Below the pieces are notes generated by a model, which searched no databases, had not been told where the DNA came from, and was given only the letters and a program-made list of their open reading frames with translations. Source: Streptacidiphilus rugosus AM-16 (GTDB lineage: Bacteria > Actinomycetota > Actinomycetes > Streptomycetales > Streptomycetaceae). From it: a stretch of 64,000 bases of DNA. Made by a program: the position numbers and the translations under genes. Below are positions 18,876 to 32,228 of the stretch, piece by piece; the stretch's first letter is position 1, and each line of letters starts with the position of its first letter. The stretch spans positions 744,001-808,000 of the forward strand of contig NZ_JQMJ01000003.1 in assembly GCF_000744655.1 (NCBI RefSeq). The letters run 5' to 3'.

Positions 18876-19062
18876 CGAACGGTTCCCGCCTCCGCACAAA
18901 TAGTCGTTGAGAACCTGGTAGTAGAGCCGTATGTCCCGGTGGGAGGGGCCTCTGTCCCCTCTGCGGGCTGGCTAAACTCACAGGATCGCCGAGAACAGGG
19001 GTTTGCGGCGGGCGCTCGCGGCACCGCTCCGAGCAACAGGACAGAGGGGGCGGCAGGCCGCG

Positions 19063-20646
19063 ATGCGCGATTTCTCGCGACGGATGGTGCTGGAGGGGCT
19101 GGTGGGGGCCGCGGGAGCCGCGGTGCTGGCCGGCTGCTCCTCGGGCGTCACGCCGCGCACCGTGGTCAGCGCCCGGCCCGTCACCGGAAACCCGGTCAGC
19201 CGCGAGAACCAGTTGCCGGGAACGACCGCGTGGATGGTGAACCACGAGGGTCTGAAGCCGACCAACGACGCGGTCGGCCAGATCCAGGGCTTCGCCAGTG
19301 CGACCAGCGCCCGGGTCGGCGAGCGGCTCGCGTTCTTCGTCTCCACGGCGCTGCCCCAGGCCTACACGATCTCGATTCACCGCATGGGCTACTACGCGGG
19401 CGCCGGCGGGCGGCTGATGACCAGCAGCCCCAAGCTGCAGGGCTTCCCCCAGCGGGCGCTCCGGGTGGATCCCGGCAACGGCATGATCGAGTGCCCGTGG
19501 CAGCAGTCCTGGTCCCTGGAGATCCCGAAGACCTGGCTCTCCGGGTTGTATCTCGCCTGCTTCACGTCCGCCGACGGCCACCGCGCCGTCACCCCGTTCG
19601 TGGTGCGGGACGACCGGCAGGCCGAGTTCAAGGTCGTCCTGCCGTTCACCACCTACCAGGCCTACAACCTGTTCCCCAACTGCGGCGTCGGGCGCAGCCT
19701 GTACTACGGCTTCCTGTCGTCCGCGCAGTCGCCGCTGGTGCAGAAGGTGAGCCCGGACGGTCACGCCTATCCGGTCCGCACGGTGCCGGGGCAGAAGTAC
19801 GTCATGCACTACCCGGAGCGGGCCAGGACGGTCTCGTTCCGGCGGCCGTACAGCGACCACGGTTTCCCGAAGGTCTTCGGCATCGACCTCTCCTTCGTCA
19901 TGTGGGCCGAGTCCCAGGGCTACGACCTGAGCTACGCGACGAGCCTGGACCTGGACGCGGGGTCGGTGGATCCCAGCCGGCACCGGGCCTTGTTGTTCCC
20001 CGGCCACGACGAGTACTGGTCCTCGAGCATGCGCCGGGTGGCCGAGGCCGCCGTGCGCTCCGGCACGCATCTCGCCTACTTCGCCTCGAACAACGTGTAC
20101 TGGAAGATACGCACGGGTACCGGCGACTCCGGCTTCTCGCAGATGACCTGCTACAAGGACGACCACGACCCGGTCCAGGACCCCACCGGCGCGACGACCA
20201 TGTGGCGCAGGGTTCGTCCGGATCGTTCCGAGGCGGAGCAGGGCCTGCTCGGCACCCAGTACAACGGCATCCTCGACCGCGCGGTGCCGCTGGTCGTGAC
20301 CGAGCCGGGGCACTGGTTCTGGTCCGGCACCGGGCTGGCCGCCGGGGACCGCGTCACCAACCTGGTGGTCGGCGAGGCCGACGGGCTGACCCCCGGCATG
20401 CCGAGGCCCGCAGGGGCCCGCGAGCAGACCCTGCTGTCCGCCTCGAAGTTCCTCTACGGCAAAGAGCCCGCCGTCCAGAACACCAGCGTCTACCAGTCGG
20501 CCGGCGGATCCTGGATCTTCACCGCCGGCACGTTCGGCTGGACCGCCGCCCTGACCGCGGCGCCGGTCCCCAACCCGTTCTGCACCCCCGTGGACGCCCG
20601 GATCCAGCACGCGACCCAGAACCTGATGTCAAGACTTCGTTCATGA
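19063..20646 (+). CDS. Tat-exported lipoprotein with N,N-dimethylformamidase beta-subunit-like domain
   Basis: A 527-residue protein. The N-terminus has a twin-arginine signal (DFSRRMVLEGLVGAAGAAVLAGC) ending in lipobox LAGC, so it is exported folded by Tat and lipidated. The body resembles the C-terminal domain of the large subunit of N,N-dimethylformamidase (DMFA2_C type), with characteristic segments TTYQAYNLFPNCGVGRSLYYGF, LLFPGHDEYWSSSMRRV and LAYFASNNVYWKIR. Actinomycete members of this family are mostly uncharacterised and often lie near polysaccharide genes, as here. True amidase activity is not implied. The start at 19063 gives the proper Tat signal; an ATG 60 bases upstream would add a leader. 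Confidence 0.8.
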   Translation: MRDFSRRMVLEGLVGAAGAAVLAGCSSGVTPRTVVSARPVTGNPVSRENQLPGTTAWMVNHEGLKPTNDAVGQIQGFASATSARVGERLAFFVSTALPQAYTISIHRMGYYAGAGGRLMTSSPKLQGFPQRALRVDPGNGMIECPWQQSWSLEIPKTWLSGLYLACFTSADGHRAVTPFVVRDDRQAEFKVVLPFTTYQAYNLFPNCGVGRSLYYGFLSSAQSPLVQKVSPDGHAYPVRTVPGQKYVMHYPERARTVSFRRPYSDHGFPKVFGIDLSFVMWAESQGYDLSYATSLDLDAGSVDPSRHRALLFPGHDEYWSSSMRRVAEAAVRSGTHLAYFASNNVYWKIRTGTGDSGFSQMTCYKDDHDPVQDPTGATTMWRRVRPDRSEAEQGLLGTQYNGILDRAVPLVVTEPGHWFWSGTGLAAGDRVTNLVVGEADGLTPGMPRPAGAREQTLLSASKFLYGKEPAVQNTSVYQSAGGSWIFTAGTFGWTAALTAAPVPNPFCTPVDARIQHATQNLMSRLRS

Positions 20647-20671
20647 GAAACGGGGCGTTCAGGTCCACGGA

Positions 20672-22237
20672 ATGAGCCATTACCCTGAGCGCGTGTCCTT
20701 CAGACTGCCGCACTTCATGACGTCCGCCGGCAAGCGCCTCGCCGCGGGGCGGCAGCGGCCCACGTCACCCACCGCAGCCGCCCCCGCGCCCTCGAAGCCG
20801 GCCGAGACCGAAGGCGCGGCCCTGCGCCGGCGGGCCGACGAGCTCGCCGAAGCGGCCCGCGGGCAGTTGGAGCGAGGCGAGATCCCCGACCACCTGGCGG
20901 ACGCCTACGCCGCGGAACTGGCCTGTGCGGACTCCGCGTACGAGGCCGGAAGGTCCGCCGAGGCCGCGGGCTCGCTGGCCAAGGCGCTGCTCCTGGCCTT
21001 CCACCGGGTCCCCCAGGTCGACAGCCTGACCACCCCGGTCAGCGACGACGCGTCGGGTTTCACCGCGCCGCTTCGCGCGAGCAGCACGGCCATGGCCGTC
21101 GTCGCTCCGCGCGGCCGCCGCACGCCGGCCGCGCGGAGGCCCGCCGACCGGCCGCTGCGGTTGCTCTTCGTCACCCATGGCAACGCGAACTTCCTGAAGC
21201 TCCTGGTCGAGCACTACCAGGACCATCCCGAGGTCGACGTCCGCACGCTCGACCTCGGCCAGGACGAGGAGATGGCTCCGCTGGCCAAGGGCCTGAAGCG
21301 GATGGCGCACGCGGCGCTGGGCGGGGAGGCGGAGTACCGCGAGGCGGTGGAGCGGGCCCTGCGGCCGCACCTGGACTGGGCGGACACCGTCTTCGTCGAG
21401 TGGTGCACCGGCGCGGCCGCGTTCCTCACGCTGGTCGACCCGGGCAGCACCCGGATCGTGGTCCGGCTGCACAGGTTCGAGACCTTCAGCTTCTGGCCGC
21501 ATGTCATCGACTTCAGCCGCGTCGACGACCTGCTGTTCATCGCCGACCACATGATCGACCTCACCACCGACGTGGTGCCGCGCCTGCTGGAGGCCGGCGG
21601 CCCGCGGCTCCAGCGCACGGACAACGCGGTCGAGCTCGGCAGGTTCGTGCGGCCCAAGGGCGAGGGGGCCCGCTTCACCGTGGGTCTCGTGGGCATGGCC
21701 CAGGTCGCCAAGGACCCGCTCTGGGCCGTCCAGGTGCTGCGCGCGCTCCGCGAGCAGGACGAGCGCTACCGGCTGGTCCTGGTGGGCAACGGGATGAACC
21801 CGGACGTCAGCCCGGCCGCCCGTGCCTACCACGACAGACTGGAGGCCGAGCTCACCGAACTGGAGGCCACCGGCGCGGTGGAGCGCCTGGGGCAGAGCGA
21901 CGACGTGCCCGGTCTGCTGACCGGCGTCGGCACCATCCTCAGCAGTTCCGTGCGTGAGGGCTGCCATGTCGGCCTGATGGAGGGAGCCGCCAGCGGGGCC
22001 GTCCCGGTCGTCAGGGACTGGCCGATGGTGGCGGGCCGCCCGCACAGCGCCCGCACCCTCTTCCCGCAGGAGTGGGTGGTGGACACCCCCGAGCGGGCCG
22101 CCGCCCGGATCCTGGCCCTGACCGGTGACGAGGAGACGTGGCGCAAGGCCGGTCAGGAGGCGTCCGCGCATGCGCTGGCCACCTGGGACTGGGAGGTCGT
22201 GCGGCCCGACTACGATCGGCTTCTGCTCGGCAGCTAG
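20672..22237 (+). CDS. Glycosyltransferase (GT4-like)
   Basis: A 521-residue protein. About residues 1-110 are helical and Ala/Glu-rich (RRRADELAEAARGQLERGEIPDHLADAYAAEL). From about 160 a two-domain GT-B enzyme follows: LRLLFVTHGNANFLKLLVEHY opens the N-domain, and FTVGLVGMAQVAKDPLWAVQVLRAL opens the C-domain with GNGMN and the nucleotide-sugar motif VREGCHVGLMEGAASGAVPVVRDWP near residues 425-450. It would add a sugar to a cell-surface glycan or teichoic-type polymer. It is followed after 32 bp by the N-acetyltransferase gene. The ATG at 20672 has a poor ribosome site; GTG at 20693 is possible. Donor and acceptor are unknown. Confidence 0.82.
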   Translation: MSHYPERVSFRLPHFMTSAGKRLAAGRQRPTSPTAAAPAPSKPAETEGAALRRRADELAEAARGQLERGEIPDHLADAYAAELACADSAYEAGRSAEAAGSLAKALLLAFHRVPQVDSLTTPVSDDASGFTAPLRASSTAMAVVAPRGRRTPAARRPADRPLRLLFVTHGNANFLKLLVEHYQDHPEVDVRTLDLGQDEEMAPLAKGLKRMAHAALGGEAEYREAVERALRPHLDWADTVFVEWCTGAAAFLTLVDPGSTRIVVRLHRFETFSFWPHVIDFSRVDDLLFIADHMIDLTTDVVPRLLEAGGPRLQRTDNAVELGRFVRPKGEGARFTVGLVGMAQVAKDPLWAVQVLRALREQDERYRLVLVGNGMNPDVSPAARAYHDRLEAELTELEATGAVERLGQSDDVPGLLTGVGTILSSSVREGCHVGLMEGAASGAVPVVRDWPMVAGRPHSARTLFPQEWVVDTPERAAARILALTGDEETWRKAGQEASAHALATWDWEVVRPDYDRLLLGS

Positions 22238-22269
22238 TCCGGCACCGCCGCACCTCGAAAGGCACTGCA

Positions 22270-22866
22270 TTGGCTCTCAGGATTCAGCCCACCGCCCAGG
22301 TCGACGAGACCGCTGAGCTCGGCGACGGCACGTCCGTCTGGGAGCTCGCGCAGATCCGCGAGAAGGCCAGGCTCGGCACCGGGTGCGTCATCGGCCGAGG
22401 CGCCTACGTCGGCACCGGCGTGCAGATCGGCGACAACGTCAAGCTGCAGAACTACGCCCTGGTCTACGAGCCCGCTGAGCTCGGCGACGGTGTCTTCGTC
22501 GGTCCGGCCGTGGTGCTCACCAACGACCATTACCCGCGCTCGGTGGACCCGGACGGCAAGCTCAAGCGTGGCGGCGACTGGGAGGCCGTCGGCGTGAAGG
22601 TGCGGGAGGGCGCCTCGTTGGGCGCACGGTCCGTCTGCGTCGCGCCGGTGGTGGTCGGGCGCTGGGCGCTGGTCGCCGCCGGGGCCGTGGTCACCAAGGA
22701 CGTCCCCGACTTCGCGCTGGTGGCCGGCGTGCCCGCGAAGCGGATCGGCTGGGTCGGCCGGGCCGGGGTCAAGCTGGTCGAGCGGGCGGACGAGCCCGGC
22801 GTCTGGCAGTGCCCGCAGACCGACGCCCTCTACGACGAGCGGGACGGCGTGCTCACCGAGCGCTGA
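22270..22866 (+). CDS. WbpD/WlbB-like N-acetyltransferase (left-handed beta-helix)
   Basis: A 198-residue hexapeptide-repeat acetyltransferase. LbH repeats run from about residue 5 to 145 (VDETAELGDGTSVWELAQI, IGRGAYVGTGVQIGDNVKLQN, VFVGPAVVLTNDHYPRSVDP). The NDHYPR segment is typical of WbpD/WlbB enzymes, which N-acetylate the 3-amino group of UDP-GlcNAc3NA to give UDP-2,3-diacetamido-2,3-dideoxyglucuronic acid. Translation seems to start at TTG (22270) with GAAAGG 8 bases upstream, directly before the first repeat; no ATG or GTG fits. It is the last gene of a plus-strand unit and is convergent with the WbpA-like gene. The partner enzymes WbpA, WbpB and WbpE lie immediately right. Confidence 0.85.
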   Translation: MALRIQPTAQVDETAELGDGTSVWELAQIREKARLGTGCVIGRGAYVGTGVQIGDNVKLQNYALVYEPAELGDGVFVGPAVVLTNDHYPRSVDPDGKLKRGGDWEAVGVKVREGASLGARSVCVAPVVVGRWALVAAGAVVTKDVPDFALVAGVPAKRIGWVGRAGVKLVERADEPGVWQCPQTDALYDERDGVLTER

Positions 22867-22892
22867 GCACGCGGCGGACCGTGGATACGCCG

Positions 22893-22926
22893 ACGGCCGG
22901 GGCGCCCCTCGCGGGGCCCCGGCCGT
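22893..22926. terminator. Bidirectional hairpin terminator
   Basis: ACGGCCGGGG-CG-CCCC (from 22893) pairs with GGGGCCCCGGCCGT (to 22926) around TCGC, with a 2-base bulge. It lies in the 69-bp gap between the convergent acetyltransferase and UDP-sugar dehydrogenase genes and can stop transcription from both sides. Confidence 0.75.
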
Positions 22927-22935
22927 TCGCGCGCG

Positions 22936-24219
22936 TCAGCCGCCGATGACGACCCGGCGGACGCCCTCCCAGCGGGCGGGGTCGGTGGTGCGGCGACCGT
23001 CGACCAGCACCGAGACCTCCGGCAGGTCCGTGGCGGCCAGCTCGCGGTACTCGGCGTGGTCGGCCTGGAGGATCGCGGCCGTCACGGTCTCGCCCTGGTG
23101 CGGGGTCAGGCCGTGCGCCGAGATCTCCTCGGCGGTGTACATCGGGTCCGAGACGAAGGGCACCGCACCGCGGGCGCGCAGCGCCTCCACCGTGCCGAAG
23201 ACGCCGGAGAACGCCATCTCCTTGACGCCGCCGCGGTAGGCGGCCCCCAGCACCAGCACGTTGACGCCGTCGAGGTCCCCGTAGGCGGCCGCGAGCAGGT
23301 CCACCGCGTACTGCGGCATCGCCGCGTTCGCCTCGCGGGCGGCCCGGACCACGGTGGCCGCCGGGTCGTTCCACAGGTACATCCGCGGGTAGATCGGGAT
23401 GCAGTGTCCGCCGACGGCGATGCCGGGACGGTGGATGTGGCTGTACGGCTGCGAGTTGCAGGCGTCGATGACCTTCAGGATGTCGATGCCGGTCTGGTCC
23501 GCGAAGCGGGCGAACTGGTTCGCCAGACCGATGTTGACGTCCCGGTAGGTGGTCTCGGCCAGCTTCGCAAGCTCGGACGCCTCCGCCGAGCCCAGGTCCC
23601 AGACCCCGTTCGGGCGGTCGAGGTCGGTGCGCTCGTCGAAGTCCAGCACCTGCTCGTAGAAGTCCACGCCGTGACGGGCGGAGGCCTCGTCGATGCCGCC
23701 GACCAGCTTCGGGTAGCGGCGCAGGTCGGCGAAGACCCGACCGGTCAGCACCCGCTCCGGGCTGAAGACCAGGTGGAAGTCCTTACCGGCGGTCAGGCCC
23801 GAGCCCTGCTCCAGCATCGGCGCCCAGCGGTTGCGGGTGGTGCCGACAGGGAGCGTGGTCTCGTAGCTGACCAGCGTGCCGGGACGCAGCCCGGCGGCGA
23901 TCGCCTTGGTGGCGTCGTCCATCCAGCCGAAGTCCGGCACGCCCTCGGCGTCGACGAACAGCGGCACCACGACCACGACGGCGTCCGACTCGGCCACCGC
24001 CGCCGCGGTGTCCGTGGTCGCGGTGAGCAGACCGGCGTCGACGGCGGCCTTGAGCTTCACGTCCAGCTCGGCCTCACCGGGGAAGGGCTCCACACCGTTG
24101 TTGACCAGGTCGACGACCGTGGCGTTGACGTCGGCGCCGATCACCCGGTGCCCCTTGTCGGCGAACTGCACTGCCAGCGGCAGGCCGATCTTGCCCAGGG
24201 CCACGACACAAATCTGCAC
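22936..24219 (-). CDS. UDP-N-acetylglucosamine 6-dehydrogenase-like (WbpA type)
   Basis: A 427-residue nucleotide-sugar dehydrogenase. The NAD site is VVALGKIGLPLAVQFADKGHRVIGADVN at residues 4-31; the central helix region has ELAKLAETTYRDVNIGLANQFA; the catalytic Cys is in GIAVGGHCIPIYP near residue 265; the UDP-binding C-domain begins VNVLVLGAAYRGGVKE. It oxidises C6 of UDP-HexNAc to the uronate using two NAD+. WbpA starts the UDP-2,3-diacetamido-glucuronate pathway, whose other three enzymes are in this window. The GTG start has GGAAGGA 7 bases upstream. It is the last gene of a three-gene minus-strand unit with two glycosyltransferases, 2 bp after the GT2 stop. Confidence 0.9.
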   Translation of the reverse strand: MQICVVALGKIGLPLAVQFADKGHRVIGADVNATVVDLVNNGVEPFPGEAELDVKLKAAVDAGLLTATTDTAAAVAESDAVVVVVPLFVDAEGVPDFGWMDDATKAIAAGLRPGTLVSYETTLPVGTTRNRWAPMLEQGSGLTAGKDFHLVFSPERVLTGRVFADLRRYPKLVGGIDEASARHGVDFYEQVLDFDERTDLDRPNGVWDLGSAEASELAKLAETTYRDVNIGLANQFARFADQTGIDILKVIDACNSQPYSHIHRPGIAVGGHCIPIYPRMYLWNDPAATVVRAAREANAAMPQYAVDLLAAAYGDLDGVNVLVLGAAYRGGVKEMAFSGVFGTVEALRARGAVPFVSDPMYTAEEISAHGLTPHQGETVTAAILQADHAEYRELAATDLPEVSVLVDGRRTTDPARWEGVRRVVIGG

Positions 24220-24221
24220 GG

Positions 24222-25817
24222 TTACTTCCTTCCAAGGGCCTGCAGGCGGCGCAGGCGTTGCGCTATGACCCGGGTGGCCCGGATCTGGGCGAGGGCGAGG
24301 ACGGCGCGCCCGGCCCGGTCGCCGACGAGGTTGACGCGGTGGTAGCGGTTGCGGAGCCACAGCTTGAGCTCCGGCAGGGTGGCGGCCGTGACGGGGAAGT
24401 CGAAAGCGCCCTCCTCGTCCGCCAGCGTGAGCCTGACGGACCACCGGCCGGCCACGGGCCTGCCCGGTGTCGACAACTCGGCCAGGGGGATCCGGAACCG
24501 GATCCTGGTGCCCGCGTCGGCGGGCGTCCCGGGAAAGGCCGGGGCGAAGGTCCGCTCGGACGCGGGACCCCCGTCCCCGTGGTGCTGGGTGAGCCGGACA
24601 CTGAGGTGGGGGCCCCACAGCCGCGCGTAGTCCGGAGCCGGACTGTGGGCGGTGAGGAGCAGGGCCGCGTCGGCGCCGGCGCTGTCCCAGGCCGGCGTGA
24701 CGTCGTTCAGGGTGGTCCGGGTGCGGTCGAACCAGCGGTCCTCGACGGAGGCGTCGGGATTCCGGAACGCCGGGTGCTCCAGGTACACCCGGCCGTCGAT
24801 CACCTGCGTGGAGTCCTGCGGGTTCGCCTCGTCGAAGCGCACCGCCTCCAGCAGCGCGTCCAGGTGGCGTCCGCGGGCCAGCAGCACCCGGACCAGCCGG
24901 CGCCAGGCCAGCCGCTCCAGGACGGCCTCGTCGATGTACTCCTCGATCAGGCGCCCGACCGTCTCCAGCAGCCGCTCCTGGTCCTCCCGACGTTCGAGGA
25001 CCGGGATCCGCTCGCTGAGCGTGATGATCATCTCGTTGTTGACGTAGCGGGTGAACACCGCGGTGCGCTGCTCGTCCGACGCCCCGAGCCGGATCGCCGT
25101 TGCCATGCTGCGCTCGAGCGCGACCAGCATGTTCTCGTCCCGGCCGCGGTAGGTGAGGTTGCTCTCGTCGTCCCGCTTGACCGCGTAGTAGTACTCGTAG
25201 TCGCCGAGCACCGAGATCTTCGCCGAACGCAGCACGCACTCCAGGGTGAACGCCTGGTCGCACAGGATCGTCAGATCCTCGTGGTACCGGATCGTGTGCC
25301 GTTCCAGCAGCGCGCGCCGGAACAGCTTGGTGTCCGAGAGCGCCCAGGGCAGGTCGGAGTCGGTGAGCCCGATGTCGTAGCGGTTGCCGTGGGCGAACAC
25401 CGACTTGGGCACGACCCGGCCGTTCACGCCGACCATGGTGCCGAGCACGATGTCGCTGCCGTGCTCGTCGGCGGTGGCGACCATGCGCTCCAGCGCCTCG
25501 GCGCCGAGGTAGTCGTCGGCGCCGATGAAGAAGACGAAGCGCCCCCTGGCCGCCTCGATGCCGCGGTTCTGCGGCGCCGCCGGGCCACCCGAGTTGGGCT
25601 GGGTGATCACCTTGACGACCTCGGGGTAGGCCGCCGCGAAGCGGGCCAGCTCCTTGGGCGAGTCGTCGGTGGAACCGTCGTCCACGGCGATGATCTCGAG
25701 CCGGTCCAGCCCGATGGACTGTCCGATCAGCGAGTCCAGACACTCCGTCAGGTACGGCATGGTGTTGTAGACCGCGATCACCACGCTGACGTCGGGAGGC
25801 GCGGTCCGGGCTCTCAT
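24222..25817 (-). CDS. Family 2 glycosyltransferase with C-terminal accessory domain
   Basis: A 531-residue protein. Residues 8 to about 110 form a GT-A (GT2) core: VSVVIAVYNTMPYLTECLDSLIGQ, IIAVDDGSTDDSP, then the metal-binding IGADDYLGAEALERM. The middle (about 140-330) is helical with KRDDESNLTYRGRDENML. The last 180 residues form a beta-rich domain (RVYLEHPAFRNPDASVEDRWFD, LSVRLTQHHGDGG, RWSVRLTLADEEGAFDFPV), of a kind found in actinomycete transferases that make teichoic-type polymers. Its ATG overlaps the stop of the upstream GT4 gene by 4 bp, so translation is coupled. Donor sugar unknown; given the WbpA gene next to it, a uronate or diacetamido sugar is plausible. Confidence 0.88.
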   Translation of the reverse strand: MRARTAPPDVSVVIAVYNTMPYLTECLDSLIGQSIGLDRLEIIAVDDGSTDDSPKELARFAAAYPEVVKVITQPNSGGPAAPQNRGIEAARGRFVFFIGADDYLGAEALERMVATADEHGSDIVLGTMVGVNGRVVPKSVFAHGNRYDIGLTDSDLPWALSDTKLFRRALLERHTIRYHEDLTILCDQAFTLECVLRSAKISVLGDYEYYYAVKRDDESNLTYRGRDENMLVALERSMATAIRLGASDEQRTAVFTRYVNNEMIITLSERIPVLERREDQERLLETVGRLIEEYIDEAVLERLAWRRLVRVLLARGRHLDALLEAVRFDEANPQDSTQVIDGRVYLEHPAFRNPDASVEDRWFDRTRTTLNDVTPAWDSAGADAALLLTAHSPAPDYARLWGPHLSVRLTQHHGDGGPASERTFAPAFPGTPADAGTRIRFRIPLAELSTPGRPVAGRWSVRLTLADEEGAFDFPVTAATLPELKLWLRNRYHRVNLVGDRAGRAVLALAQIRATRVIAQRLRRLQALGRK

Positions 25818-27397
25818 GACCGGGTGCCGATCGTGCCCCGGGGCGCGGAGACCACCCGGCTGTAGACCTCGTCCAGGACCGTGGCCTGGTGCTCCCAGGT
25901 CCACTGCTCCAGCAGCCCCGGCTGGTCGTAGACCTTGGCGTAGCGCTCCGGGTCCGCGAGCACCGCCCGCACCGCGCGCAGGAAGTCGTTCAGGTCCTCG
26001 GCCTTGAAGATCTCACCCTGGCCGGTGCGCTCGGCGACCTCGCTCATCGTCTTCACGTCGCTGACGACCAGCGGCAGCCGCGCGTGGGAGTACTCGAAGT
26101 ACTTGGTGATCAGCGCGATCTCGTGGTTGGGCCAGTGGTGGATCGGGATGACGCCGACGGTCGCACCGGAGAGGAAGGGGACCACCTGGTAGTGCGGCAC
26201 GTAGCCCATGACGTGGACCCGGTCGGAGACGCCGAGCTCCTCGGCCTTGGCGACCAGGCTGCGCAGGTAGGCGGACTTCGGGTCGAGCACCACCAGGGCC
26301 GTGTGCACGCCGGGCAGCTCGGGCAGGGCCTCGACCATGATGTCCAGGCCGCGCTGCGGTGCCGCGGCGCCGCTGTAGACCATGAGCGGGACGTCGGCGC
26401 CGATGCCGCACAGCTCCCGGATGTCGGGGACGGCCTCGTCCGAGACGTCCTCGGGGGCCTCCCCACCGGGGGCGTTGAGCACCACGGCCGGCTTCTCGGG
26501 GAGCGCGTGGGACTCCTGGAGCATGTCCGCCAGGGTGTCCGAGACCGTGATCACCGCGTCGGCGTACGGGGAGTACTCCCGCTCGTGGTGCACGTTGGCC
26601 GGGCGCCAGCGGGCGTTGTCGGTGTACGGCCGCACGCCGGGCAGGTACTCGTGGGCGTCCCAGACGAGCTTGACGTCACGGCCGGTGGCGCGCTGCCGGA
26701 TGGTGGAGCGGGCCCCGACGCCGAGCATGCGGAAGTCGTTGGCGTGGATCAGCTCCGGCTTGAGGCTGTCGATGACCGGGCCGAACGCGAGCTCGTAGTC
26801 CCACAGCTGCGGGTCGAGCTGGCGCCAGGCGCGGTTGCCGCGGGCCTTCACCAGCACGCGGGCCCAGAGCTGGTCGAGGCGCGTGTCGGTGTTCTTCCGC
26901 GACTCCTTCATGCGCCTGGTCTCCCCGGCGCGCAGCCGCACCCAGCGGTACGCCACCTGCGCGGCCAGACGCGGTGGGACGAGCGCGGCCTTGCCGAGCG
27001 CGCGCCCGGCAGGCGACTTGGCCTTCTTGGCGTTCGGGCTGAGCTCGGCGAGTCGCACCGCGAGGTCGGCCCGCCAGGCCTTGACCTGCTGGGTCCGGTA
27101 CTGCGCCACGTGGTAGGGCGGGTAGGCCAGCGGGCGGCGGAGCCAGGAGCGGCGGAACCAGTGCCGCTGCATGCCCAGAGGGGTCGGCATGTGGATCAGC
27201 CGGACGTCGGCCTCGCCGATCTTCCAGGTCTGGGTCTCCCCGGTGTACGAGCGACCGAGCAGAGTCACCTCCCACCCGGCCTCGGCGGCCGAGCGGGCGG
27301 TCTTCTGGACACGGGAGTCGCCGTGGACCCCGTTGTCGACAAGCATGACGACCCGTCCACGATGGGCTCGCGGGGCGACACCGCTGTCCGGCTCCAT
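25814..27397 (-). CDS. Family 4-like glycosyltransferase
   Basis: A 527-residue GT-B glycosyltransferase. RVVMLVDNGVHGDSRVQKTARSAAEAGWEVTLLGRS (residues 15-50) is the typical acceptor-domain opening with the VQK loop. There is a basic insertion (about 115-175). The C-domain starts DVPLMVYSGAAAPQRGLDIMVEAL, and the donor motif HWPNHEIALITKYFEYSHARLPLVVSDV includes the conserved Glu. AGAGGAG lies 10 bases before the ATG. This is the first gene of the GT4-GT2-WbpA unit; the gap upstream has the terminator of the WbpE-WbpB unit, so it must have its own promoter. It likely builds a cell-envelope glycan. Confidence 0.87.
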   Translation of the reverse strand: MEPDSGVAPRAHRGRVVMLVDNGVHGDSRVQKTARSAAEAGWEVTLLGRSYTGETQTWKIGEADVRLIHMPTPLGMQRHWFRRSWLRRPLAYPPYHVAQYRTQQVKAWRADLAVRLAELSPNAKKAKSPAGRALGKAALVPPRLAAQVAYRWVRLRAGETRRMKESRKNTDTRLDQLWARVLVKARGNRAWRQLDPQLWDYELAFGPVIDSLKPELIHANDFRMLGVGARSTIRQRATGRDVKLVWDAHEYLPGVRPYTDNARWRPANVHHEREYSPYADAVITVSDTLADMLQESHALPEKPAVVLNAPGGEAPEDVSDEAVPDIRELCGIGADVPLMVYSGAAAPQRGLDIMVEALPELPGVHTALVVLDPKSAYLRSLVAKAEELGVSDRVHVMGYVPHYQVVPFLSGATVGVIPIHHWPNHEIALITKYFEYSHARLPLVVSDVKTMSEVAERTGQGEIFKAEDLNDFLRAVRAVLADPERYAKVYDQPGLLEQWTWEHQATVLDEVYSRVVSAPRGTIGTRS

Positions 27398-27450
27398 GAA
27401 AAAGACACTCCTCTGTCGTGTGTTGCCGGGTCGTGCAGGAGAGAACGTGA

Positions 27451-27479
27451 GCGGCGGCCGGACATCCGTCGGCCGCCGC
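27451..27479 (-). terminator. Hairpin terminator after the WbpB-like gene
   Basis: GCGGCGGCCG (27451-27460) and CGGCCGCCGC (27470-27479) form a perfect 10-bp stem with a 9-base loop, 12 bases after the WbpB-like stop on the minus strand. It separates the WbpE-WbpB unit from the glycosyltransferase unit. Confidence 0.7.
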
Positions 27480-27490
27480 GGACCGCCCCG

Positions 27491-28498
27491 TCAGACGCCG
27501 TCGGCGGCGATTCTTATGGTGCGGCCCTGGCTGGCGGAGTCCAGGACGGCGGCGGAGACCTCGACGGTGCGCAGTCCCTGACGCAGTGTGACGATGCCCG
27601 CGTCCTTCCCCTCCACCGCGTCGCGGAAGCGCTCGTGCTCGACGAGCAGCGGCTCGCGCTTGGGGATGGCGAAGCGGATCATGTCGCCCTCGGAGACGCC
27701 GCGGAAGGCGCGCAGCGCCTCCCACTCGGTGTCGACCATGCCGTTGGCGTAGAAGGTCAGGTCGGCGGTCAGGGTGTCCGCGACGAAGGTGCCCTTGTCG
27801 CCGGTCACGACCGTGGACCGCTCCTTGAGCGGGCTGAGCCAGTTGACCAGGTGGTTCGCCATGGCGCCCTGGGAGAGCTGGGCGACGACCGCGACCATGT
27901 CCTCGTGCACGCGGCCGCTCTTGGAGACGGTGTGCGCGGACACGGACAGGTAGTCCTGGCCGGTGACCCAGCTGGTCAGGTCGATGTCGTGGGTGGCCAG
28001 GTCCTTGACCACGCCGACGTCGGCGATGCGGTGCGGGAAGGGGCCCTGGCGGCGGGTGACGACCTGGAAGACGTCCCCGAGCTCGCCGGCCTCCAGCCGC
28101 GAACGCAGGCTCTGCAGTGCCGGGTTGAAACGCTCGATGTGGCCGACGCCGGCCACCAGGCCGCGCGACTCGAACGCCTCGACCAGCCTGCGCGCGCCCT
28201 CGACCGTGTCCGCCAGCGGCTTCTCGATCAGCGCGTGCACACCGGCCTCGGCCAGCTCCAGGCCGACCGTCTCGTGCAGCCCGGTCGGGCAGGCGACGAC
28301 CGCGTAGTCGACGCCGAGGGCCAGCAGGTCCGACACGGTCGGCACGACCGGCACGCCGCGTGCGGCGCCGCCGGGGTCCCCCGCGGGGTCCACCACGCCG
28401 ACCAGGTCGACGCCGTCCAGCGCGCCGAGCACCCGGGCGTGGTTGCGGCCCATCGCGCCGACGCCGATCAGGCCGGCCCGCAGCTTCGACGCCTTCAC
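27491..28498 (-). CDS. Gfo/Idh/MocA-family 3-dehydrogenase (WbpB/WlbA-like)
   Basis: A 335-residue oxidoreductase. The NAD site is LRAGLIGVGAMGRNHARVL at residues 6-24. The conserved EKP (ALIEKPLADTVEGARRLVEAF, about residue 95) and VKDLATHDIDLTSWV (about 180) contain the catalytic Lys and the HD motif. In the Wbp/Wlb pathway this enzyme oxidises C3 of UDP-GlcNAcA, handing a 3-keto sugar to the aminotransferase. It overlaps the upstream aminotransferase by GTGA, i.e. the WbpE-type and WbpB-type proteins are made together, as expected for partners that exchange a labile keto intermediate. A related role in another amino-sugar pathway cannot be excluded. Confidence 0.87.
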   Translation of the reverse strand: MKASKLRAGLIGVGAMGRNHARVLGALDGVDLVGVVDPAGDPGGAARGVPVVPTVSDLLALGVDYAVVACPTGLHETVGLELAEAGVHALIEKPLADTVEGARRLVEAFESRGLVAGVGHIERFNPALQSLRSRLEAGELGDVFQVVTRRQGPFPHRIADVGVVKDLATHDIDLTSWVTGQDYLSVSAHTVSKSGRVHEDMVAVVAQLSQGAMANHLVNWLSPLKERSTVVTGDKGTFVADTLTADLTFYANGMVDTEWEALRAFRGVSEGDMIRFAIPKREPLLVEHERFRDAVEGKDAGIVTLRQGLRTVEVSAAVLDSASQGRTIRIAADGV

Positions 28499-29607
28499 AG
28501 CTGACCCTCCAGCGCGTTGACGGCCGTCACGATGCGGTCGAGCTCGTCCTGGGAGAGGGACGGGTGCACCGGCAGCGACAGCGCCTGGGCGGCGGCCCGC
28601 TCGGTCTCCGGCAGGTCCCACGCGCGGAGCGAGGACGGGCCCTGCTCGGCGAACGGCTTGAGCCGGTGGATCGGCGTCGGGTAGTAGACGGCGTTGCCGA
28701 TCCCCTTGGCGGTCAGCTCCGCCTGGACCGCCTCGCGGTCGGCCGGCACCCGGACCGTGTACTGGTGGTAGACGTGCTCGGCGCCGTCGGCGACGGGCGG
28801 GACGACCAGCGTCTTGATGCCCTCGCTCAGGAACTTGGCGTTCGCCTGCCGCTGGGCGGTCCACGCGGGGAGCTTGGACAGCTGCACCCGGCCGATCGCG
28901 GCGGCGACGTCGGTCAGCCGGACGTTGGCGCCGACGATCTCGTTGGCGTAGCGCTGCTCCATGCCCTGGTTGCGCAGCAGTCGCAGCGTGCGGGCCACCT
29001 GCGCGTCGCCCGTGGTGATCATGCCGCCCTCGAGCGAGTGCATGTTCTTGGTCGGGTAGAAGCTGAAGGCAGCGGCGTTGCCGAAGGCGCCGACCGGGGT
29101 GCCGTTCAGTGCCGCGGCGTGCGCCTGGGCGGCGTCCTCGACCACGGCGAGGCCGTGCTGCGCGGCCAGGGCCTGGATCCGGTCCATGGCGGCGGGGTGG
29201 CCGTAGAGGTGAACCGGCATGATCGCGGCGGTCTTCGGCCCGATCGCGGCGGCGACCGCGTCCGGGTCCACGCAGAACGAGTCGGGCTCGATGTCGGCGA
29301 AGACCGGCTCCGCGCCGACCAGCCGGACCACGTTCGCGGTGGCGGCGAAGGAGAACGAGGGGACGATGACCTCGTCACCCGGGCCGATGCCCAGGGCGAG
29401 CAGGGCCAGGTGGAGGGCGGAGGTGCCGGAGTTCACCGCGACGCAGTGGCGTCCCGCCACCAGCTCGGAGAACTCCTCCTCGAACGCCGCAACCTCTGGT
29501 CCCTGGACGACCATGCCGCTGCGCAGCACGCGCACCGCCGCTTCGATCTCTTCTTCGCCGATCACGGGGCGCGCCGGGGGTATGGGCGCGAAGCCATGGT
29601 CCTGCAT
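28495..29607 (-). CDS. DegT/DnrJ/EryC1-family sugar aminotransferase (WbpE-like)
   Basis: A 370-residue PLP enzyme. GRHCVAVNSGTSALHLALLALGIGPGDEVIVPSFSF forms the cofactor pocket, VEDAAQAHAA carries the PLP-pyridine Asp, and the Schiff-base Lys is in FSFYPTKNMHSLEGGM near residue 185. The C-domain has NVRLTDVAAAIGRVQL and VYYPTPIHRLKPF. WbpE aminates the 3-keto sugar from WbpB with glutamate as donor. The ATG at 29607 has AAGGA 7 bases upstream; an upstream in-frame ATG lacks a ribosome site. It is the first gene of the two-gene minus-strand unit, with its promoter in the gap to geosmin synthase. Confidence 0.9.
   Translation of the reverse strand: MQDHGFAPIPPARPVIGEEEIEAAVRVLRSGMVVQGPEVAAFEEEFSELVAGRHCVAVNSGTSALHLALLALGIGPGDEVIVPSFSFAATANVVRLVGAEPVFADIEPDSFCVDPDAVAAAIGPKTAAIMPVHLYGHPAAMDRIQALAAQHGLAVVEDAAQAHAAALNGTPVGAFGNAAAFSFYPTKNMHSLEGGMITTGDAQVARTLRLLRNQGMEQRYANEIVGANVRLTDVAAAIGRVQLSKLPAWTAQRQANAKFLSEGIKTLVVPPVADGAEHVYHQYTVRVPADREAVQAELTAKGIGNAVYYPTPIHRLKPFAEQGPSSLRAWDLPETERAAAQALSLPVHPSLSQDELDRIVTAVNALEGQL

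Positions 29608-30002: not shown

Positions 30003-32228
<2,226 letters not shown>

What the first reader, a model, noticed from the sequence alone, without database searches (positions are those of the whole stretch)
22270..29607. Complete WbpA-B-D-E enzyme set for UDP-2,3-diacetamido-glucuronate in an actinomycete
Four different families needed for UDP-GlcNAc(3NAc)A synthesis occur within 7.4 kb: 6-dehydrogenase (22936-24219), Gfo/Idh 3-dehydrogenase (27491-28498), DegT aminotransferase (28495-29607) and LbH N-acetyltransferase (22270-22866). They are interleaved with three glycosyltransferases. The four-enzyme pathway is established for Pseudomonas WbpA/B/E/D. Diacetamido-uronic acids are reported in some actinomycete wall polymers, so this may be the route to a teichuronic-type glycan. 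No WbpI-type 2-epimerase is seen, so the gluco form rather than the manno form is predicted.
Basis: partly seen in the sequence, partly recalled or inferred. Interest (0 to 1): 0.7.

Follow-up and report, generated by a model that had tools for sequence, protein, structure and literature searches.

The report
Streptomyces-type cell-wall sugar-acid gene cluster

Summary
All four enzyme families are at the stated coordinates, in two converging gene runs with three glycosyltransferases. They match the published utr locus of Streptomyces (PMC13274773), which makes a teichuronic-acid-like polymer on ribitol wall teichoic acid; in S. antibioticus, lacking the epimerases, that polymer is pure GlcNAc3NAcA. 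The window's cluster also lacks a 2-epimerase, so the gluco form is the best guess; the genome's only one lies on another contig. This is a new member of a known kind. 'WbpA-B-D-E' fits D and E better than A and B. The 3-dehydrogenase is not WbpB-like (19 bits) but nearest to GnnA by sequence. The 6-dehydrogenase has Tyr where relatives carry a catalytic Asp, in 80 of 80 best actinomycete relatives. Tyr-type dehydrogenases form one clade across Archaea and four bacterial phyla (28 Tyr against 17 Asp rows, 100/98). The 27 compared that have a Gfo have a GnnA-like one, but the converse fails: Azospirillum and perhaps eight loci of the genus pair such a Gfo with an Asp type. Related strains have the acid in their walls, so the Tyr type probably works; substrate and step order are untested.

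The parts
28495..29607 (-). DegT/DnrJ aminotransferase, UtrA-like; likely aminates C3
   Evidence: PF01041 417 bits; solved relatives 7b0d, 2oga, QdtB 3frk, WbpE 3nyu from 5e-84 to 1e-68; 60 of 80 related loci carry it at >=60% identity
27491..28498 (-). Gfo/Idh/MocA dehydrogenase, UtrB-like; likely oxidises C3
   Evidence: NF040723 UDP-GlcNAc 3-dehydrogenase 204.9 bits, below its cut-off of 450; best solved sequence 7bvj, titled GnnA; overlaps the DegT stop by 4 bases
25814..27397 (-). GT4 glycosyltransferase (GT4b), possible chain extension
   Evidence: PF00534, PF13439; 42 of 80 related loci have a match
24222..25904 (-). GT2 glycosyltransferase, UtrC/TarS-like; likely puts the first sugar on ribitol phosphate; true start probably lies inside, since the frame overlaps GT4b
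   Evidence: PF00535 and a TarS_linker match just under its cut-off; solved relatives 5tze 2.2e-43 and 5tz8 (listed only as 'Glycosyl transferase', the name TarS is recalled); 71 of 80 loci have a match
22936..24219 (-). Nucleotide-sugar 6-dehydrogenase, UtrD-like, Tyr type
   Evidence: TIGR03026 over cut-off; Cys273 and Lys219 kept, Tyr277 for Asp, Thr223 for Asn
23386..23412 (-). GGHCIPIYP motif: catalytic Cys273 kept, Tyr277 in place of the catalytic Asp
22270..22866 (+). Left-handed beta-helix N-acetyltransferase, UtrJ/WbpD/WlbB-like
   Evidence: 3mqg 2.9e-40; the Thr-Asn and Pro-Arg of the aligned WlbB stretch are kept (that the Asn is catalytic is recalled)
20672..22237 (+). GT4 glycosyltransferase (GT4a)
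   Evidence: PF13692 30.3 bits; no solved relative at 0.01
19003..20646 (+). DMFA2_C (dimethylformamidase large-subunit-like) protein with twin-arginine and lipobox-like N-terminus; possible outside-acting amidase, role unproven
   Evidence: PF20254 326.5 bits; 6lvd/6lvb 4e-6; present in 4 of 4 window-type loci of the genus but in 6 of 80 of the wider set

Best explanation
The stretch 19003-29607 is a utr-type cluster. Gfo and DegT turn C3 of the sugar of UDP-GlcNAc (or of its 6-acid) into an amine, LbH acetylates it, and the 6-dehydrogenase oxidises C6 to a carboxylate, giving UDP-GlcNAc3NAcA. The TarS-like GT2 puts the first residue on ribitol phosphate of wall teichoic acid and the GT4 enzymes extend the chain. 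Shown here: gene content, subfamilies, active-site residues, conservation and partner pattern. Shown by others in relatives: the polymer, its structure and the need for utrC (and utrG in S. antibioticus). Inferred: the activities in this strain, the gluco form, and the order of steps. I lean to 3-oxidation, amination and acetylation before 6-oxidation, because the 3-dehydrogenase is nearest by sequence to GnnA, titled a UDP-GlcNAc 3-dehydrogenase, rather than to enzymes of the acid; this lean is weak.
For: Families and coordinates. Gene order DegT-Gfo-GT4-GT2-6DH facing LbH is like utrA-D and utrJ in PMC13274773. TarS-like GT2. 51 of 80 best relatives hold all of Gfo, DegT and LbH; 19 of 80 lack Gfo in the fetched flank, and in 12 of 12 of those searched genome-wide a Gfo of 75-83% is present. 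Three TagF-family genes in the genome. S. antibioticus, lacking utrE, F and H, makes a beta-1,4 GlcNAc3NAcA homopolymer.
Against: No chemistry on this strain. The 6-dehydrogenase lacks the Asp whose change to Asn is reported as detrimental in human UGDH. The genome has a 2-epimerase, a second LbH (76%), a DegT (46%) and a Gfo (33%) in another cluster. The cluster is on another contig than the TagF genes, whereas the paper's loci typically sit by wall teichoic acid genes. Among the 20 frames scanned with Pfam none hit a flippase or O-acyltransferase family that could be UtrI or an exporter.
Confidence: 0.8

Rival explanations
1. The set works exactly as Pseudomonas WbpA, B, E, D: 6-oxidation first, then 3-oxidation of UDP-GlcNAcA. 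The Tyr is a neutral change.
Against: Gfo has no meaningful similarity to a Pseudomonas WbpB (19 bits; 7.4 bits to a four-sequence WbpB HMM), though 71 bits to the WlbA-like one of Lawsonia; nine of ten Asp-type sets compared have WbpB- or WlbA-like Gfo, none of 27 Tyr-type sets has.
Confidence: 0.4
2. The strain makes the manno form, UDP-ManNAc3NAcA, by using the 2-epimerase encoded on contig C4.
For: One Epimerase_2 in the genome; 54 of 80 related loci carry a 2-epimerase match; S. griseus makes ManNAc3NAcA.
Against: That epimerase sits beside its own Asp-type 6-dehydrogenase, as in 8 of 16 Asp-type loci of the genus, its own included; 19 of 51 complete sets have no epimerase match nearby.
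Confidence: 0.15
3. The 6-dehydrogenase is inactive or stops at another oxidation state, and the polymer contains a neutral or otherwise modified 2,3-diamino sugar.
For: Loss of the Asp and Asn of the usual active site in the clade.
Against: Catalytic Cys and Lys are invariant in 21 sequences; uronic acid is present in S. griseus and S. antibioticus polymers. Loci named S. globisporus (taken from recall as near S. griseus) and S. anulatus (a close relative of S. griseus by the paper) are Tyr type. The UtrD sequences of the two NMR species themselves were not seen.
Confidence: 0.06

Closest known systems
utr locus / teichuronic-acid-like polymer of Streptomyces griseus and S. antibioticus (PMC13274773)
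   Same: Aminotransferase, oxidase, TarS-like GT, UDP-sugar dehydrogenase and N-acetyltransferase in like arrangement; no 2-epimerase in the cluster, as in S. antibioticus
   Different: Different genus (Streptacidiphilus by inference), not on the contig with the TagF genes, an added DMFA2_C gene; its GT4 genes were not matched to UtrF or UtrG
Pseudomonas WbpA-B-E-D pathway to UDP-GlcNAc3NAcA
   Same: Same four reaction types; LbH is of the WbpD kind and DegT close to WbpE
   Different: Gfo is of another subfamily; the 6-dehydrogenase has Tyr and Thr for Asp and Asn; no WbpI in the cluster
GnnA of Acidithiobacillus ferrooxidans and archaeal UDP-GlcNAc 3-dehydrogenase (NF040723)
   Same: Gfo's best solved sequence match is GnnA; NF040723 is its best NCBIfam match
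   Different: Score 204.9 is under the NF040723 cut-off of 450; GnnA serves lipid A (recalled), not a wall polymer
UDP-ManNAc / UDP-GlcNAc 6-dehydrogenases (4r16, Cap5O 3ojl, WbpA, TviB)
   Same: TIGR03026 family, Cys and Lys kept
   Different: Asp at Cys+4 in the five solved sequences printed (of 13 listed) and in the Pseudomonas WbpA; Tyr here

Membership tests
Wbp pathway (WbpA/B/D/E) | WbpA-type 6-dehydrogenase with catalytic Asp | tested here: not met
   GGHCIPIYP against GGHCIPIDP in the Pseudomonas wbpA locus
Wbp pathway (WbpA/B/D/E) | WbpB-type 3-dehydrogenase | tested here: not met
   19 bits to one Pseudomonas WbpB, 7.4 bits to a four-sequence WbpB HMM; fold alone does not separate it from WlbA
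Wbp pathway (WbpA/B/D/E) | WbpE-type 3-keto-sugar aminotransferase | tested here: inconclusive
   WbpE 3nyu 1.3e-68, but 7b0d, 2oga (DesV, recalled) and QdtB rank higher
Wbp pathway (WbpA/B/D/E) | WbpD/WlbB-type N-acetyltransferase | tested here: met
   3mqg 2.9e-40, residues 4-194 of 198
utr locus of Streptomyces | Aminotransferase, oxidase, TarS-like GT and UDP-sugar dehydrogenase together with an N-acetyltransferase | tested here: met
   against PMC13274773
utr locus of Streptomyces | Located by the wall teichoic acid genes tagF/tarIJ and rplU/rpmA | tested here: not met
   tagF part only: the three PF04464 genes lie on C4, the window on C3; tarIJ and rplU/rpmA were not sought. The paper says 'typically' this place, so a soft feature
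utr locus of Streptomyces | Diacetamido-uronic acid polymer on ribitol phosphate | not testable with these tools
   needs wall chemistry
UDP-GlcNAc 3-dehydrogenase (NF040723) | Score over the curated cut-off | tested here: not met
   204.9 of 450 bits
Nucleotide-sugar dehydrogenase (TIGR03026) | Score over the curated cut-off; Cys nucleophile and Lys kept | tested here: met
   286.4 bits, cut-off 189.8; C273 and K219 invariant in 21 sequences

The most novel reading that the evidence does not exclude
There are two parallel enzyme pairs for this sugar acid in nature. In the one seen here, a GnnA-like 3-dehydrogenase acts on UDP-GlcNAc, and a separate ancient clade of 6-dehydrogenases, with Tyr and Thr, Gly or Cys in place of the textbook Asp and Asn, oxidises the finished 2,3-diacetamido sugar last, by a changed base or water-activation chemistry. 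The pair is shared by actinomycetes, haloarchaea and scattered other bacteria and is mistaken for WbpA/WbpB in annotation.
Probability: 0.35. Interest if true: 0.6.

Novelty: new member of a known kind. Interest (0 to 1): 0.45.

Why it matters
The polymer is a receptor by which Streptomyces umbrella toxins choose targets (PMC13274773), so knowing which genomes carry the set predicts wall chemistry. The Tyr-type 6-dehydrogenase gives a natural test of whether the catalytic Asp of this family is needed, and its motif (GGHC-x3-Y against GGHC-x3-D) marks a clade that annotation does not separate.

Tried and rejected
A pseudoenzyme reading of the 6-dehydrogenase was dropped as main reading, since strains with the locus have the acid in their walls and Cys and Lys are invariant. 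That Micromonospora-type relatives lack Gfo was an artefact of the 10 kb flank: 19 of 80 loci lacked it there; 12 of those 19 were tested genome-wide and 12 of 12 have it at 75-83%. Two phylum loci without Gfo in the 20 kb stretch have it 14-17 kb away. The AlphaFold model of the 6-dehydrogenase was poor in the active site (pLDDT 31-55 over residues 221-300) and was not used. The Gfo model was good, but its fold matches GnnA and WlbA equally well, so it decides nothing. A scan of viral contigs found no relative. Paper search for a Tyr variant of these dehydrogenases found none, but it asked for three of six terms and is weak; only open-licence papers are searched.

A strict partner rule (GnnA-like Gfo means Tyr type) was tested and fails. 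The Azospirillum Gfo, next to an Asp-type dehydrogenase, has NF040723 as its best family (143 bits) and groups with the Gfo of Pararhizobium and Gloeothece. In 8 of the 14 genus genomes a Gfo of 31-35% identity, of that same group (NF040723 142.6 bits for the window genome's copy), lies 18-24 kb from an Asp-type dehydrogenase; it may serve another sugar, but at that distance the Asp-type control is not clean. G001 has a 43% Gfo and no Tyr-type dehydrogenase.

Rows dropped: a second Azospirillum dehydrogenase without a recognisable motif was left out of the trees. Of 30 LbH hits listed (362 records matched) I fetched 12; 10 had a 6-dehydrogenase with a Gfo, Parabacteroides had neither, Deinococcus had no 6-dehydrogenase in the stretch. 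Haloarchaea also match LbH lower down, so these 10 are not a fair sample of all LbH hits. Priestia has a Tyr-type dehydrogenase and DegT but no Gfo in the stretch. The five loci L174-L178 have no DegT nearby. Two phylum loci (L166, L167) were not in the trees, their Gfo lying outside the stretch.
Full report
Observation. The minus-strand run is DegT (28495-29607), Gfo/Idh (27491-28498, overlapping by 4 bases), a GT4 (25814-27397), a GT2 (24222-25904) and the 6-dehydrogenase (22936-24219). It faces a plus-strand run of a DMFA2_C protein (19003-20646), a GT4 (20672-22237) and the LbH acetyltransferase (22270-22866). A terpene cyclase frame (30003-32219) and a ROK gene flank it.

What it is. The arrangement is like the utr locus of Streptomyces, reported in PMC13274773 (sections 8, 9 and 10 and search passages read): utrA aminotransferase, utrB oxidase, utrC TarS-like glycosyltransferase, utrD UDP-sugar dehydrogenase, utrJ N-acetyltransferase. 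The window's GT2 is TarS-like (5tze, 2.2e-43; the name TarS for that entry is recalled). In the paper S. griseus makes a ManNAc3NAcA-GalNAc repeat; S. antibioticus, which lacks utrE, F and H, makes a beta-1,4-linked GlcNAc3NAcA homopolymer, both on ribitol wall teichoic acid. The window's cluster has no 2-epimerase, so the S. antibioticus type is the closest precedent. The genome does have one Epimerase_2 on contig C4, beside an Asp-type 6-dehydrogenase, and three TagF-family genes, all on C4.

Spread. Of the 80 best relatives of the 6-dehydrogenase in actinomycete contigs (capped list; Streptomyces, Micromonospora, Salinispora, Actinomadura, Glycomyces, Nocardioides, Actinoplanes and others), 61 have Gfo, 60 DegT and 52 LbH at 60% identity or more within the fetched flanks, 51 all three, and 54 a 2-epimerase match. 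The flanks are up to 10 kb and some contigs end early. Of the 19 without Gfo, 12 were searched genome-wide and 12 of 12 have it. In a draw of 396 genomes of the phylum, 16 carry the Tyr motif, the window's own included. In the genus (14 genomes) the 82% Gfo occurs only in the genomes with the 78-80% Tyr-type dehydrogenase, besides the window's own.

Second, the 6-dehydrogenase. In human UGDH Asp280 holds the catalytic water and its change to Asn is detrimental; Cys276 is the nucleophile, Lys220 stabilises charge (PMC3184952, passages). The window enzyme keeps Cys273 and Lys219 but has Tyr277 at Cys+4 and Thr223 at Lys+4, where relatives have Asp and Asn. The five solved relatives printed (of 13 listed) have Asp. 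All 80 actinomycete loci have Tyr (63 IYP, 17 VYP).

Partners. Ten plasmid sets fetched through LbH hits that hold a 6-dehydrogenase (12 of 30 listed hits fetched) are all Asp type, with Gfo scoring 1-86 bits on an HMM of the actinomycete Gfo. Twenty-seven Tyr-type sets, six haloarchaeal, one alphaproteobacterial and one cyanobacterial among them, score 118 or more. That HMM was built from actinomycete rows, so only the non-actinomycete rows are independent, and sets without a Gfo (Priestia) are not counted. In the dehydrogenase tree the Tyr type is one clade (28 against 17 Asp rows, 100/98). In the Gfo tree nine of ten Asp-type partners fall in WbpB- or WlbA-like groups; the Azospirillum one falls with Pararhizobium and Gloeothece. 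One shared origin explains the Tyr pattern, so it is one event, not many.

Controls. All 15 non-own Tyr loci of the phylum draw have a Gfo within 18 kb: 13 in the 20 kb stretch (one of them 35% identical and on the other strand, L164) and two 14-17 kb off. Sixteen other 6-dehydrogenase loci of the genus, Asp type, had 0 of 16 Gfo or DegT matches within about 10 kb, 8 of 16 a 2-epimerase, and 3 of 16 an LbH of 76-82%. But 8 genomes of the genus have a Gfo of 31-35% 18-24 kb from one of these, in the window's genome with a DegT and an LbH beside it, and this Gfo groups with those of Pararhizobium and Gloeothece. So Tyr type implies a GnnA-like Gfo in what I saw, and not the reverse.

Mechanism. 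I think it somewhat more likely than not, among the orders possible, that Gfo, DegT and LbH build UDP-GlcNAc3NAc and the Tyr-type enzyme then oxidises C6 twice through Cys273. The order is inferred from the Gfo subfamily only, and the Azospirillum case weakens it. That the Tyr type works is inferred from wall polymers of S. griseus and S. antibioticus; I saw the enzyme of other species (S. globisporus L082, S. anulatus L095 and L103), not of these two.

Verdict. The added point is the mismatch with the Wbp enzymes, which the sections and passages of PMC13274773 that I read do not discuss (the term utrD occurs once in its main text), and for which searches listed no paper.

Noticed in passing
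window 19003-20646: DMFA2_C protein with twin-arginine (SRRMVLEG) and lipobox-like (LAGC) N-terminus; the Glu of the dimethylformamidase PEY stretch aligns with the Glu of its DEY. It may trim amide groups of the exported polymer; in 4 of 4 window-type genus loci but only 6 of 80 wider ones.
   Followed up: partly
G000:C4 about 5171661-5198926 (L194, L221): A second sugar cluster of the same genome holds an Asp-type 6-dehydrogenase, the only Epimerase_2, a Gfo (33%), a DegT (46%), another DMFA2_C-matching frame and an LbH 76% identical to the window's.
   Followed up: partly
L048, L049, L050: A paralogous Tyr-type set (6-dehydrogenase 59%, Gfo 48-50%, DegT 44-46%) in three genomes of the genus, two of which also hold the window-type set.
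   Followed up: partly
L134 9366-13005: Streptomyces plasmids carry a Gfo (57-61% identity, seven records) and, where annotated, a DegT; in L134 these lie by a phosphopantetheine-binding protein whose frame matches LbH, with no 6-dehydrogenase in the stretch: perhaps a 3-amino sugar feeding a secondary metabolite.
   Followed up: no
Micromonosporaceae loci such as L080, L083, L101, L108, L123: The LbH near the 6-dehydrogenase is only 43-49% identical there, so the acyl group may differ.
   Followed up: no
window 24184-24201 (-): The window-type dehydrogenases have AxGxxG in the NAD-binding turn, where the 59% paralogues have GxGxxG.
   Followed up: no
G001:C1:7289809-7290777 (L209): A Gfo 43% identical to the window's in a genus member without a Tyr-type dehydrogenase; its neighbours were not read.
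   Followed up: no
window 30003-32219 (-): Terpene cyclase frame scoring 1137 bits on the family 2 encapsulin cargo model NF041168, just under its cut-off of 1200; no encapsulin shell gene was sought.
   Followed up: no
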